A stretch of 64,000 nt of DNA, taken from contig NZ_CAKMAA020000006.1 of NCBI RefSeq assembly GCF_924101635.2, positions 1 to 64,000 on the forward strand. Direction: 5' to 3'. The notes beneath the pieces are model-generated. The model made no database searches. It was not told the DNA's origin and was given only the letters and a program-made list of their open reading frames with translations. The DNA comes from Candidatus Nitrotoga sp. HW29. GTDB lineage: Bacteria; Pseudomonadota; Gammaproteobacteria; Burkholderiales; Gallionellaceae. Both the position numbers and the translations under genes were made by a program. Positions 4,760 to 62,772 of this stretch are shown piece by piece. How positions within the stretch are numbered: position 1 is the first letter of the stretch; every line of letters starts with the position of its first letter.

Positions 4760-5371
4760 ATGTTCAGATTTTTTATTTTTTTATTTTTTGTTTTGCCTCT
4801 TTCAGCGTATGCCGGAGCCACCGATAAGCTGAAAAATTTCATTGCGTCTACGCATTCGGCACAGGCCAATTTCACTCAAGAAGTGCTGGATAAAGGTGGC
4901 AAGCGCATTCAGTCGGCTTCCGGCACAATGCAATTTGTACGACCCGGAAAATTTCGCTGGGTCTATCAGAAGCCTTTTGAACAATTGATTGTGGGCGATG
5001 GCGAGAAATTCTGGTTGCATGACGTGGAACTTAATCAGGTCACAGTAAAGAAAATAGATGCAGCATTGGGCAGTAGTCCTGCGGCACTTCTGTCTGGTAG
5101 CAATGAAATTGAGCGCGGTTTTGAGTTGAAAGATAACGGAATGAAGGATAGCCTCGAATGGCTGCAAGCTATGCCCCGTGCACAGGACACCAGCTTCGAG
5201 AAAATTCTTATGGCATTTAATGCGCAATCCGAGCTGATGATCATGGAATTGCAAGATGCCTTTGGTCATACCACTGTGCTTCGTTTTTCGAAGCTGCAAC
5301 GCAACCCGAAACTATCCCCGCAATTGTTCAAATTTGTACCGCCCAAAGGGGCGGACGTACTGGGTGAATAA
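4760..5371 (+). CDS. lolA: outer-membrane lipoprotein carrier LolA
   Basis: LolA is the periplasmic chaperone that takes lipoproteins from LolCDE and hands them to LolB in the outer membrane. The 203-residue product has a signal peptide with cleavage expected after AYA (residue 18). The mature part carries the LolA pattern: an ANFTQ region, a PGKFRW strand and YQKPFEQLIVGDGEKFW. AAAGGA about 8 bases before the ATG supports the start. It lies between ftsK and rarA in the conserved proteobacterial order and is probably cotranscribed with them. Confidence 0.95.
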   Translation: MFRFFIFLFFVLPLSAYAGATDKLKNFIASTHSAQANFTQEVLDKGGKRIQSASGTMQFVRPGKFRWVYQKPFEQLIVGDGEKFWLHDVELNQVTVKKIDAALGSSPAALLSGSNEIERGFELKDNGMKDSLEWLQAMPRAQDTSFEKILMAFNAQSELMIMELQDAFGHTTVLRFSKLQRNPKLSPQLFKFVPPKGADVLGE

Positions 5372-5427: not shown

Positions 5428-6756
5428 ATGTTTTCCTCGCGCGATAACCTGTTTGACCCACCTGCACCCGCTGCGCCCCTGGCCGAGCGTTTGCGTCCCA
5501 AGCACATCGATGAGGTGATCGGGCAAGCCCATCTGCTGGGTCCGGGTCGACCACTGCGCTTGGCGTTTGAATCAGGCAAGCTGCATTCCATGATTCTGTG
5601 GGGGCCACCCGGCGTGGGTAAGACCACTTTGGCCAGGCTCATGGCCTTGGCGTTTGATGCCGAATTTGTGCCGCTATCGGCAGTGCTATCCGGTGTGAAG
5701 GACATTCGCGATGCTATTGCGCAAGCGCAGCATACCTTGCAGCAGAGCGGGCGCCACACTATTTTGTTTGTGGACGAGGTACATCGCTTCAATAAATCGC
5801 AGCAGGATGCATTTCTGCCTTTCGTCGAACAAGGCTTGGTCACCTTCATCGGCGCGACCACCGAAAATCCTTCATTTGAAGTGATTAGCGCGTTGTTGTC
5901 ACGGGCCCAGGTTTATGTGTTGCAAGCCTTGTCAGAGGCTGAATTGAATCAACTGTTCAAACGCACGCAACAGCTTGCCTTACCGGATTTGGAATTTGAC
6001 GATGCGGTGCGTGAACGCATTATCGGCTATGCCGATGGCGATGCGCGCCGCTTGCTAAACGTGCTTGAGCAATTGCAAACCGCCGCTCAGGCCGCGCATA
6101 TTACGCATCTCAATGCCGATTTTCTGGACAAAACTTTGGCCCAGAATCTGCGTCGTTTCGACAAGGGCGGCGAAGCATTCTATGATCAGATCTCCGCATT
6201 GCATAAATCGGTGCGAGGTTCCAATCCCGATGCCGCTCTGTATTGGCTGGTGCGTATGCTGGATGGCGGTGCCGATCCGCGTTATCTGTCGCGGCGTATT
6301 GTGCGTATGGCATGGGAAGATATTGGCTTGGCCGATCCGCGCGCGATTCAATTAACGTTGAATGCCGCCCAGACCTACGAGCAATTAGGCTCGCCGGAAG
6401 GCGAGCTGGCATTGGCGCAGGCGGTGCTCTACCTGGCCGCTGCGGCCAAGTCGAATGCGGGTTATGTCGCGTATAATGCTGCCCGCGCCTTGGTCGCCCA
6501 AGACGGGTCGCGTCCGGTACCCTTGCATTTGCGCAATGCGCCAACCAAATTGATGAAACAGCTTGATTACGGCAAGGACTATCGTTACGCACACAATGAA
6601 ATGGAAGGCTATGCAGCCGGTGAAAGTTATTTTCCGGAGGACATGCCGGAGGTGAATTTTTACCAACCAGCCGAGCGAGGCCTTGAAGCAAAAATCGCGG
6701 AAAAACTGGCCCACCTCCGTGAGCTGGATGCTGCGGCAAAAAGAAATGAAAAATGA
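5428..6756 (+). CDS. rarA: replication-associated recombination ATPase RarA (MgsA)
   Basis: RarA is a clamp-loader-like AAA+ ATPase acting at stalled replication forks. The 442-residue product has the N-terminal PLAERLRP segment, Walker A GPPGVGKTT (59-67), Walker B DEVH (116-119), a sensor region GATTENPSFE and the C-terminal MgsA tetramerisation domain rich in Ala and Tyr. Length and motifs match full-length family members. It lies between lolA and serS, the same order as in E. coli. No strong ribosome binding site precedes the ATG, so translation may depend on readthrough from the upstream message. Confidence 0.93.
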   Translation: MFSSRDNLFDPPAPAAPLAERLRPKHIDEVIGQAHLLGPGRPLRLAFESGKLHSMILWGPPGVGKTTLARLMALAFDAEFVPLSAVLSGVKDIRDAIAQAQHTLQQSGRHTILFVDEVHRFNKSQQDAFLPFVEQGLVTFIGATTENPSFEVISALLSRAQVYVLQALSEAELNQLFKRTQQLALPDLEFDDAVRERIIGYADGDARRLLNVLEQLQTAAQAAHITHLNADFLDKTLAQNLRRFDKGGEAFYDQISALHKSVRGSNPDAALYWLVRMLDGGADPRYLSRRIVRMAWEDIGLADPRAIQLTLNAAQTYEQLGSPEGELALAQAVLYLAAAAKSNAGYVAYNAARALVAQDGSRPVPLHLRNAPTKLMKQLDYGKDYRYAHNEMEGYAAGESYFPEDMPEVNFYQPAERGLEAKIAEKLAHLRELDAAAKRNEK

Positions 6757-6769
6757 TTACAGCATGTGA

Positions 6770-8098
<1,329 letters not shown>

Positions 8099-8245
8099 TG
8101 ATCATTGTCGTCGCGATGGAATGTGTGATCTACATATCGAAGAGGCGTGAGAAGTGATAGCACGAGATGGGTTCACCAAATATCCGGTGGATGGTGCTAC
8201 GCTTTCTTGTCTTGTCGAGCTATACTGAAAAATTTTGGAAGTTAA

Positions 8246-8272
8246 AAAGGTGATGGGTATACCATCACCTTT
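8246..8272 (+). other. perfect 11-bp hairpin downstream of serS
   Basis: AAAGGTGATGG and CCATCACCTTT form a perfect stem around a 5-base loop. No T-run follows, so it is only a possible weak terminator or mRNA-end stabiliser for serS, or a leader structure of the next gene. Confidence 0.5.
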
Positions 8273-8340
8273 AGCAATGTATATTTAAAATGTGCCTGCC
8301 TAAAAGGCGGGCGTTGTTGTATGGGCACAAGGAGATAGAA

Positions 8341-8853
8341 ATGGAAATATCGGGAATTTCAACATTGAGCACTATTTTGATGCGCCCTATCGAGGCCAGA
8401 AGTGATGCTCTTGCCCAGCGCAGAGAACTGGCAGCTGAGTTGCAAGAAAATTGCCAAAAATTGACGGTACTTTTGAAAAGTACGTTTCGTATTGCTAGCC
8501 AAGTGAGCGAAATAGATTCCGGAGCGTCTGAAAAGAAAATCATGAGTCTGATGGATGATTTTAAAAATGTGGATAGCATATTTCTGGAAGACGAGAGTTC
8601 AATTCTGCTGTATTTGGCAATTGACTGGCGTTTTAAGGATTTCGCAAAAAGTTGCGCAGACTTTTATAAATCGGCGCTTAACTTGAAACAACTTCTCAAC
8701 GAGAATATACCGGATTCGACCGCGCTTAAAGCATTAAGCAAAGAAGAAGGTTTGTTAAAATTGGCGGGGGCTTGGCAAGGTGAGCTTGAAGCAATGCTGG
8801 AACGTGTCAATCAAGAGTACATGAAAGTTATGGTTATTAAATTTTCTTGGTAA
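8341..8853 (+). CDS. hypothetical helical protein
   Basis: I recognise no family for this 170-residue product. AAGGAGA (8329-8335) precedes the ATG at 8341 at good spacing. The frame is open for 17 further codons upstream, but that extension has no ribosome binding site. The protein looks almost wholly alpha-helical and acidic, with several heptad-like stretches (about residues 15-60 and 125-160), no signal peptide and no membrane span, and probably sits in the cytoplasm. It stands alone between serS and the convergent mltF. Codon use resembles its neighbours but is richer in A+T. Confidence 0.6.
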   Translation: MEISGISTLSTILMRPIEARSDALAQRRELAAELQENCQKLTVLLKSTFRIASQVSEIDSGASEKKIMSLMDDFKNVDSIFLEDESSILLYLAIDWRFKDFAKSCADFYKSALNLKQLLNENIPDSTALKALSKEEGLLKLAGAWQGELEAMLERVNQEYMKVMVIKFSW

Positions 8854-30286: not shown

Positions 30287-30620
30287 TTCATTTTCTCTAT
30301 ATCCCTGTATCTATATAGTTCCAGTTCTGACTCAGCAGGCAATTGAACGATGCGCGACAAAGCTGTGTATTGTCCGACTACGTCTACGTTTAATTACTGC
30401 GGCTTGGGAACTGGTTTTGTCTCCCCTCTCGTTATGCCCAATTGTTTTCGTTGGATGTTAAACTTAAACCTTAGACTCATTAGCCAGATGAGTTGGGGGG
30501 TATTTATTAGGGGTGGCTAGATCCAAGGAATGGAGATATCCATGGTAATGCTGATGGGAATTGAGTTTTAGGTCACAATAGTTATATATTCAATCACCTT
30601 AATTACGAAGGAGAAATATC

Positions 30621-60316: not shown

Positions 60317-60510
60317 AGTTCAAGTACGTAATAGATGGGTATCATACCAACGTTTGTTCAAGGCAATAGCGTGAGCGAGCATTCATTACCTTGAATAAAA
60401 CAGTGCTTCCTGTTTCAATCCGCTTGTAAATATAAAACGATTACGGACAAAATATGATTCCTGTATCAGAAAGAATCGGCATCATCGGCGGTAGCGTGAT
60501 TTATAACATT
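60317..60510. repeat. 194-bp direct duplication, copy A
   Basis: This interval matches 61748-61941 without gaps at about 170 of 194 positions (24 mismatches counted by eye). It covers the nadE-mtnP intergenic region and the first 19 codons of mtnP, ending at ACATT. Copy A runs into unrelated sequence while copy B continues into the intact mtnP. The pair brackets the attC-like site and the HEPN gene. Confidence 0.9.
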
Positions 60511-60609
60511 AATTTAAAGGGAATAGCCTTGACATCACGCATCTGGCCTAACGTTGTGTCAAGACTTGCCTCCTTGATTTCAGCTGCAAAAATTAAGGCA
60601 GCGCCCTAA
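60454..60609 (+). pseudogene. truncated mtnP start with foreign tail
   Basis: Copy A of the duplication keeps the mtnP start codon and a divergent N-terminus (MIPVSERIGIIGGSVIYNIN). It then switches to an unrelated 31-codon tail and stops at a TAA lying inside the first core box of the attC-like site. A Gly of the nucleoside-binding loop is changed to Val. It is not a working phosphorylase. Whether the 51-residue peptide is made is unknown. Cassette genes often end at the attC box, so the tail may be the last piece of an older cassette gene. Confidence 0.6.
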
Positions 60610-60686
60610 CATGGTGCTCAACCTCGCTCCTTTCGCTGGGCGCTGCGCGATAAAGCCGCGCAGCGCTGGTTAGCTTTTCATTAGGT
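60604..60686 (+). other. attC-like integron recombination site
   Basis: The 83-bp segment has attC architecture. CCCTAAC (60604-60610, outer box) faces ATTAGGT (60680-60686). GCTCAACC (60616-60623) faces GGTTAGC (60668-60674) with one unpaired base, as expected for the extrahelical base. 5-base unpaired spacers lie between boxes on both sides. A perfect 10-bp GC-rich inner stem (60640-60649 with 60657-60666) caps it. Weak points are the A instead of G at the crossover box and a 16-base asymmetric interior. The HEPN gene starts 12 bases after it. No integrase or second attC is visible. Confidence 0.6.
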
Positions 60687-60698
60687 GTCAGGAATACC

Positions 60699-61730
60699 GT
60701 GCCCGGCGCCTCCTATCGCTTCCGACTCCGACTTGCGTGCAAGCGAACTGGCACGTTTGCCTTTTCGACACCGACCGCCTCAGTCCCAGTTTCGGATGGG
60801 CTGACGTTTGAGCTTTCTGCGCGGAACGCCGATTCACTTGACGAGGCAACTAACTTTCACTTTGATGGCGGCGGATTCCTCAGTGCGAATGAAGCGAGAC
60901 AAGCTGCCGAAGCTCTGCGAATCAGACTTCGACTGCTGAATGCGATTTTGGGACTAGGACTGAACATCCCGGTGGGCGACAAAGTCTCTTCTCAAGTATC
61001 GGAGGAGATCAAGACTAAATTGAAGTCAGAGCAAAACGCGACCGTGATCGACAGCATTTGGGGTGTCAGTGTCTATCCCGACGACGGGCTTCACTTCGAG
61101 TACATCCTAAGCGGAAACGTCGTTGTCAAACCAAGCGATCCTTCGTACATCCTCGACGGCCTCAAAACCATCTGGGATTTAGTTGTCTCCCTTGACTCAG
61201 CGTCTGAGGTCGCTCTCCACATTCTTTGTCTCGCCACACAGGAAACATCTGACAAGGCAAACTTTCTGACAAGCTACCTTGCACTTGAGCAGTTGGTCGA
61301 TCGCGAATCTCGCAGCACTGCAGCTCAAGCCGCCATTCGTAGATTCCAGGACGAACTAACATCGGCTGCGACAATCGAAAAGTCGTTGACTGATGCGGAA
61401 GTACGCTCTTTGAATGGAGCACTTGCCTCACTCAACGAGGAGTCGTTTCCCTCAGCGCTCACTCGATTGGGAACTCGCATCGCCACTCCAGCGCGCATCT
61501 GCGGTGTTACCCCCACCAAATTTCTTTCAGCCTGCATCTCGGCGCGAAACAAAATTGCACACCACGCTGAACCTGAGACGGAGATTCCTCTCGGGGAACT
61601 CGCTAAGGGCCTCCGTGAGTTCGTCCTCGGATTGATCTGGACGCGAAACAGCCTTCCTTCGTTTACGATGACCACGCCGCCGTCAGCAGTCAGCATTCCA
61701 TCTGGTGGCATGTCCATTCGCGTCATGTGA
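60699..61730 (+). CDS. HEPN-domain protein, putative cassette-borne toxin/defence gene
   Basis: I do not recognise a named family for the whole 343-residue product. Its C-terminal third (about 245-320) is helical and contains SARNKIAHH, where Arg283 and His288 form the R-x4-H motif of HEPN ribonucleases. The layout of a beta-rich N-terminus (about 1-170) followed by a C-terminal HEPN domain recalls ApeA-type abortive-infection proteins. AGGA lies 6 bases before the GTG start. No signal peptide or membrane span is present. Codon choice (many TTC, ATC and CTC) differs from the neighbours. It lies 12 bases after an attC-like site and between two copies of a chromosomal duplication, so recent acquisition is likely. 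Function is inferred only from motif and context. Confidence 0.65.
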   Translation: MPGASYRFRLRLACKRTGTFAFSTPTASVPVSDGLTFELSARNADSLDEATNFHFDGGGFLSANEARQAAEALRIRLRLLNAILGLGLNIPVGDKVSSQVSEEIKTKLKSEQNATVIDSIWGVSVYPDDGLHFEYILSGNVVVKPSDPSYILDGLKTIWDLVVSLDSASEVALHILCLATQETSDKANFLTSYLALEQLVDRESRSTAAQAAIRRFQDELTSAATIEKSLTDAEVRSLNGALASLNEESFPSALTRLGTRIATPARICGVTPTKFLSACISARNKIAHHAEPETEIPLGELAKGLREFVLGLIWTRNSLPSFTMTTPPSAVSIPSGGMSIRVM

Positions 61731-61747
61731 GCCCAAGCCGCTCGCTG

Positions 61748-61941
61748 AGTTCAAGTAGGTAATGGGTGGGTATCATACCAACGTTTGTTAAAGGCAATAG
61801 CGTGGGCAAGCATTCATTGTATTGAATAAAACTGTACTTCCTGTTTCAATCCGCTTGTAAAAATAAAATAATTACGGACAAGTCATGATTGATGTACCAG
61901 AAAGAATCGGCATAATCGGCGGCAGCGGGATTTATGACATT
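61748..61941. repeat. 194-bp direct duplication, copy B
   Basis: This is the partner of 60317-60510. It begins 18 bases after the HEPN gene stop and contains the promoter region, ribosome binding site and first codons of intact mtnP. Confidence 0.9.
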
Positions 61942-62772
61942 GCCGGGTTGACCAACAAGCGCTGGGAAAAGGTCACTTCGCCTTTTGGAGAACCATCCAG
62001 CGAGTTATTGTTCGGTGAGCTGGACGGCCACAATATTGTGTTTTTGCCTCGTCATGGTCGCGGACATAGAGTTCCGCCGACCGAAATCAATTTTCACGCC
62101 AATATCGACGTGCTGAAGCGGGTAGGGGTGACTGATGTCATTTCAGTTAGTGCCGTTGGTTCCTTGCGCGAGGACTTGCCGCCGGGTACGTTCGTGATTG
62201 TTGATCAATTTATTGATCGTACTTTTGCGCGTAATAAGTCTTTTTTTGGTACGGGATTGGTGGCGCATGTTTCCATGGCACATCCTGTTTGCAAAAGGCT
62301 GGGCGATCATATTGAAAGGGCCGCGAGAGAGGCAAATATCCCTGTTGTTCGTGGCGGGACCTATCTGGTTATGGAAGGGCCGCAGTTTTCCAGTCTGGCT
62401 GAGTCGAATCTTTATCGTACCTGGGGGTGTGATGTCATTGGCATGACCAACATGCCAGAGGCCAAGCTCGCCCGCGAGGCAGAGTTGTGTTACGCCACCG
62501 TGGCGATGGTGACTGACTATGACTGTTGGCATCCCGACCATGAGCATGTCACGGTCGGGCAGATCATCAAGATGCTCACCGAAAATGCGGATAAGGCGAA
62601 AACGCTGGTAACGCACGTTGTTCCGAAAGTGCGCACTGATGCGCTGGCTGATGTCTGTAGCTGTCGCTCGACATTGGAATTCGCGCTCATTACTGCACCG
62701 GAAGCGCGTGATGCAGCCATGATTGAAAAGCTGGATGCGATTGCGGGTCGGGTGTTGAAGGGTAAGTCATGA
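61885..62772 (+). CDS. mtnP: S-methyl-5'-thioadenosine phosphorylase
   Basis: MtnP splits methylthioadenosine, a by-product of polyamine and homoserine-lactone synthesis, to adenine and methylthioribose-1-phosphate. It often also accepts 5'-deoxyadenosine. The 295-residue product has the phosphate loop IGGSGIYD (residues 10-17), PRHGRGHRVPPTEINF, MEGPQFSS and IGMTNMPEAKLAREAELCYA, the MTAP signatures that separate it from purine nucleoside phosphorylase. The aldolase gene overlaps its stop by 4 bases. The first codons are duplicated at 60454. Confidence 0.95.
   Translation: MIDVPERIGIIGGSGIYDIAGLTNKRWEKVTSPFGEPSSELLFGELDGHNIVFLPRHGRGHRVPPTEINFHANIDVLKRVGVTDVISVSAVGSLREDLPPGTFVIVDQFIDRTFARNKSFFGTGLVAHVSMAHPVCKRLGDHIERAAREANIPVVRGGTYLVMEGPQFSSLAESNLYRTWGCDVIGMTNMPEAKLAREAELCYATVAMVTDYDCWHPDHEHVTVGQIIKMLTENADKAKTLVTHVVPKVRTDALADVCSCRSTLEFALITAPEARDAAMIEKLDAIAGRVLKGKS

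What the first reader, a model, noticed from the sequence alone, without database searches (positions are those of the whole stretch)
60604..60686. attC-like site without integrase, with the expected extrahelical base
Outer boxes CCCTAAC/ATTAGGT, inner boxes GCTCAACC/GGTTAGC differing by exactly one base, symmetric 5-base spacers and a 10-bp GC cap reproduce attC folding. It appears alone in a housekeeping region, which suggests a lone cassette inserted at a secondary site, or the remnant of an array.
Basis: partly seen in the sequence, partly recalled or inferred. Interest (0 to 1): 0.7.

Follow-up and report, generated by a model that had tools for sequence, protein, structure and literature searches.

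The report
Decayed integron cassette site beside mtaP
The hairpin is a genuine but worn integron recombination site (attC), part of a broken piece of a gene-cassette array parked next to the housekeeping gene mtaP; related bacteria carry different cassettes at the same spot, so it is a well-known kind of thing in an instructive place.

Summary
60604-60686 has all the stated boxes and spacers, the single extra L'' base and a 10-bp cap. A covariance model built from 16 other attC sites, without this one, scores it 58.2 bits, E = 3e-13. Its closest relatives (81-85% identical) lie mostly on contigs with intact intI genes in other species of the genus. The crossover G of the R' box is A (ATTAGGT), so the site is probably inactive.

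The genome is not integrase-free: it has an intI elsewhere, broken by a stop at codon 31, a three-attC array on another contig and a further attC. Nor is this a lone cassette. The attC is the tail of a lost cassette, followed in register by a second cassette gene (ORF 60699-61730) whose only relative found, in a Sulfuritalea MAG, lies between two attC-like sites. The second cassette's own attC is missing.

The fragment lies between a truncated and an intact copy of the mtaP 5' region. Nine of 13 congeners compared carry such an insert, with different genes; five of the nine contain attC. This is integron debris in a genus-wide insertion hotspot: a new member of a known kind. How cassettes reach the hotspot is not settled.

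The parts
60604..60686 (+). attC site, decayed at the R' crossover base (ATTAGGT instead of GTTRRRY)
   Evidence: Boxes read directly; covariance model without this site 58.2 bits, E 3e-13; 81-85% identical to attC sites of the genus, mostly on intI-bearing contigs; bottom-strand fold
60699..61730 (+). ORF of 343 aa, gene of the next cassette; starts 18 nt after the cassette boundary (60681), with AGGAA upstream
   Evidence: 67% identical homologue in Sulfuritalea MAG L017 lies between attC-like sites 4906-4972 (22 bits) and 6046-6106 (28 bits); no Pfam or NCBIfam family above cut-off; weak Apea-like HEPN hits (E 0.2 and 0.06) and RNKIAHH motif
60317..60510 (+). truncated copy of the mtaP leader and first 19 codons (left direct repeat)
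   Evidence: 88% identical to 61748-61941; same breakpoint in five other genomes of the genus
60516..60581 (.). about 60-bp imperfect palindrome, a repeat of the genus that borders most inserts at mtaP; not an attC of this family
   Evidence: copies also at unrelated intergenic places; not reported by the attC model in the mtaP loci
60582..60603 (+). short stretch before the attC, possibly the last codons of the lost cassette gene, with TAA inside R''
   Evidence: Reading frame GCT GCA AAA ATT AAG GCA GCG CCC TAA in the sequence; inference only
61731..61747 (+). right junction: the second cassette's attC is missing; the sequence runs into the mtaP 5' flank at GCCCAAGC
   Evidence: Compared with L017 (GAGCTCAAGC after the stop) and with relatives' right flanks (TTAGCCCAAGC)
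61748..61941 (+). right copy of the mtaP 5' region, continuous with intact mtaP (61885-62772)
   Evidence: mtaP identified by NCBIfam NF006492

Best explanation
The hairpin is an attC site by descent. It is the 3' end of one lost gene cassette, joined in the usual way to the start of a second cassette that encodes a 343-aa protein. This two-cassette fragment of an integron array was moved into a recurrent insertion spot between nadE and mtaP, where an insert with a duplicated mtaP 5' end lets mtaP remain intact. It later decayed: the crossover G of R' became A, and a deletion, plausibly at the short match GCCCAAGC, removed the second cassette's attC and the right-hand palindrome. The site is most likely inert now: its R' core is mutated and the genome's only recognised intI has a stop at codon 31. 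Shown: attC identity, cassette register, hotspot, intI defect in this assembly. Inferred: route of entry, order of decay, inactivity.
For: Held-out covariance model 58.2 bits, E 3e-13; L''/L' helix of the training set covaries; 85% identity to an attC of G412:C96, 6464-6550, on the opposite strand to and upstream of an intact intI (7435-8376); 91% over 35 nt to the blaOXA-2 cassette attC of R46. The ORF homologue in Sulfuritalea is flanked by attC-like sites on both sides and has a similar boundary-to-start leader. mtaP inserts in 9 of 13 congeners compared, empty in G401, G407, G411, G412; attC in the inserts of the window's genome, G399, G413, G404, G408. Own genome: intI with TGA where three close relatives have TGG, attC sites on C47 and C93.
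Against: No integrase acts visibly at the locus, so the route of entry is unobserved. Neither end of the insert is a clean G|TT junction. The two attC-like sites flanking the Sulfuritalea homologue score only 22-28 bits. The assembly is a draft of 96 contigs, so the intI stop could be a sequencing error.
Confidence: 0.85

Rival explanations
1. A single cassette was inserted by IntI into a secondary (attG-like) site at this spot while intI was still active, and later lost its ends.
For: Solitary cassettes do appear scattered in the genus, for example ORF177 plus attC between the trpE-like and xth-like genes in G404 (L163). IntI insertion outside att sites is reported (Loot et al. 2024, as cited in PMC12444791).
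Against: Here parts of two cassettes are present, the gene of the attC is missing, the attC is followed by a cassette rather than by host DNA, and the ends are a genus-wide palindrome and duplicated mtaP DNA.
Confidence: 0.12
2. The hairpin is a general intergenic hairpin or transcription terminator that only resembles attC.
For: Similar hairpins occur in 18 of 19 genomes of the genus, some of them solitary, including one behind efp in several species.
Against: It belongs by sequence to attC sites in intI-linked arrays and in the R46 class 1 integron; most of the solitary copies inspected directly follow a small ORF; 56 of 120 genomes of the order have none at E 1e-4; R and L boxes and extrahelical base all match.
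Confidence: 0.03

Closest known systems
CALIN elements (clusters of attC sites lacking an integron integrase; IntegronFinder, PMC9024848)
   Same: attC and cassette gene without intI nearby; reading as a degraded integron
   Different: Only one attC here, below the default threshold of two; the genome has a separate array and a broken intI
CALINs at conserved chromosomal loci in Xanthomonas (PMC12444791)
   Same: Integrase-less cassettes at the same housekeeping locus in several species, away from intI
   Different: Here the locus is nadE-mtaP, with a duplicated mtaP 5' end and palindromic repeats, and the gene content differs from species to species
blaOXA-2 cassette attC of plasmid R46
   Same: Same attC sub-family, 91% identity over 35 nt of the cap and L' region
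   Different: R46 site has a consensus R' (GTTAAAC); the window site is 13 nt longer and has ATTAGGT

Membership tests
integron attC site | R''/R' and L''/L' boxes with about 5-nt spacers and an extrahelical base in L'' | tested here: met
   Direct reading; bottom-strand fold; covariance model
integron attC site | Homology to attC sites of arrays next to intI | tested here: met
   81-85% to sites of G412:C96, E 3e-13 with held-out model
integron attC site | Intact GTT at the R' crossover point | tested here: not met
   ATTAGGT at 60680-60686; so it is filed as a decayed attC, not as a working one
integron attC site | Recombination by IntI | not testable with these tools
   Needs an assay
gene cassette | ORF followed by its own attC | tested here: not met
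   ORF343 has a cassette 5' boundary, but its own attC is missing at 61731-61747; the homologue L017 has an attC-like site there (28 bits). Filed as a truncated cassette
CALIN (IntegronFinder 2 default) | At least two attC sites close together without intI | tested here: not met
   One attC at this locus; no intI match on the window's contig

The most novel reading that the evidence does not exclude
The nadE-mtaP spot is an insertion platform of its own: an uncharacterised mechanism, perhaps using the 60-bp palindrome and the carried mtaP 5' end, repeatedly loads integron cassettes and other genes there without IntI acting at the locus, while keeping mtaP functional.
Probability: 0.15. Interest if true: 0.55.

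Novelty: new member of a known kind. Interest (0 to 1): 0.3.

Why it matters
It adds a clear natural case of integron cassettes living outside integrons, at one shared chromosomal spot with different cargo in different species of a genus where intI is common but absent or broken in several genomes. Single-contig genomes of that genus with scattered solitary cassettes and no intI match would let the question of how cassettes leave integrons be tested by comparing occupied and empty sites.

Tried and rejected
Box-and-spacing scans: too weak, shuffles score as high. Rfam at gathering thresholds: only a tRNA in the window. Treating the 60-bp palindrome as another attC: rejected, because most copies lack R'' and R', copies occur at unrelated conserved intergenic sites, and the attC model does not report them. 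In G408 and G310 the last copy happens to be framed by GCCCAAC or GGCTAAC and GTTGGGC; left unexplained. Phage records: no match. AlphaFold model of the 343-aa protein: pLDDT 39, not used. Gene trees of nadE and mtaP: occupancy is interspersed but poorly resolved, so gains and losses were not counted.

Full report
What is there. At 60604-60686 the + strand reads CCCTAAC-ATGGT-GCTCAACC-...-GCGCTGCGCG-ATAAAGC-CGCGCAGCGC-T-GGTTAGC-TTTTC-ATTAGGT. The bottom strand folds into the attC form with that base bulged.

Is it more than chance? Box matching alone is not decisive: my scan found equal scores in shuffled sequence. Homology is decisive. I aligned 16 attC sites from integron arrays of the same genus, from inserts at the mtaP locus of two congeners and from plasmids, leaving the window site out. 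The named structure has 88% of cells paired and a covariation score above all shuffles, with changes on both sides in the L''/L' helix. The model built from them scores the window site 58.2 bits, E = 3e-13, and it is the best hit in the whole genome. The nearest single relatives are sites in G412:C96, on the opposite strand to and upstream of an intact intI (85% and 81%), in G411:C4, a contig that also carries intI (83%), and in the mtaP insert of G399 (81%). The cap is 91% identical over 35 nt to the attC of blaOXA-2 in plasmid R46. E-values from the shortened calibration are rough.

What it belongs to. The site is followed, 12 nt after R', by an ORF of 343 aa at 60699-61730 whose start lies 18 nt after the cassette boundary. 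Its only homologue found, 67% identical in a Sulfuritalea MAG, has an attC-like site directly before (4906-4972, 22 bits) and after it (6046-6106, 28 bits), which supports a cassette gene. No homologue was seen in 398 other genomes of the order or in plasmids. The protein has no family assignment; weak Apea/HEPN hits and an RNKIAHH motif suggest, no more, a HEPN-type protein. Before the attC only about 22 nt separate it from a palindrome, so the gene that owned this attC is gone. After the ORF the expected attC is missing, and the sequence joins the mtaP flank at GCCCAAGC, a motif close to both the cassette end of L017 and the flank of relatives. The fragment therefore holds parts of two consecutive cassettes, not one lone cassette.

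The locus. The fragment is flanked by two copies of the mtaP 5' region, 60317-60510 truncated after codon 19 and 61748-61941 leading into intact mtaP. Thirteen genomes of the genus, this one included, were compared. Four have nadE and mtaP directly adjacent (G401, G407, G411, G412). Nine have inserts, bordered in most cases by the truncated mtaP 5' copy, a 60-bp palindrome and a second palindrome. Their genes differ: for example a PemK-like protein in G399, a lipoprotein-like and a cupin-like protein in G408, a longer multi-gene insert in G415 (names by eye, not by database). attC sites occur in the inserts of five: this genome, G399, G413, G404 and G408. The palindrome is a separate repeat of the genus with copies at unrelated conserved intergenic places.

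The integrase question. The genome has an intI on contig C93 with a score far above the family cut-off but with a TGA at codon 31, where three close relatives read TGG. An IS91-like element lies directly upstream of it (named by eye). Contig C47 holds three attC sites in a row on one strand and ends in a copy of the same element, and C93 holds another attC behind a 499-aa ORF. intI is over the cut-off in 12 of 19 genomes of the genus. attC of this family occurs in 18 of 19, often as solitary sites behind small ORFs even in single-contig genomes G404 and G406, which had no intI match. In a sample of the order, 63 of 119 other genomes have a site and the rest none at E 1e-4, so the model does not fire everywhere.

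Mechanism. Most likely an array fragment entered the nadE-mtaP hotspot by recombination that did not cut at attC boundaries, and then decayed. Insertion of one cassette by IntI at a secondary site is possible in this genus, but does not fit the truncated ends here. The site is probably inactive because the crossover G is A; that GTT is needed is established knowledge of integrons, not tested here.

Known or new. Integrase-less attC loci are a known class (CALIN; PMC9024848), and conserved chromosomal positions for them are described in Xanthomonas (PMC12444791). This is a new member of that kind. The hotspot with its carried mtaP 5' end is the part worth a second look.

Noticed in passing
window 30325-30394: A second, decayed attC-like site (31.1 bits, E 8e-6) between efp and mscL; sites at the same place behind efp in G404 (54 bits), G413, G415 and weakly in G412 and G406.
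   Followed up: partly
L012 1543-2505 (G000:C93) and L137 (G000:C47 59916-61174): The genome's own integron appears split: intI with a stop at codon 31 beside an IS91-like element on C93, and a three-attC array on C47 whose contig end carries the same IS91-like element.
   Followed up: partly
L163 929-1538 and other loci L162-L181: Solitary cassettes (small ORF plus attC) scattered through chromosomes of the genus, including single-contig genomes without an intI match, for example between trpE-like and xth-like genes in G404.
   Followed up: partly
L020 (NZ_CP092287.1, 1-1983): A 1983-bp circular Marinobacter 'plasmid' with three attC-like sites, toxin-antitoxin and cupin genes and no annotated replication gene: it looks like an excised circle of cassettes deposited as a plasmid.
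   Followed up: no
window 60516-60581; G408 oriented 7815-7882: 60-bp palindrome of the genus; in G408 its centre is inverted relative to the other copies and it is framed by GCCCAAC and GTTGGGC like an attC. Function unknown.
   Followed up: partly
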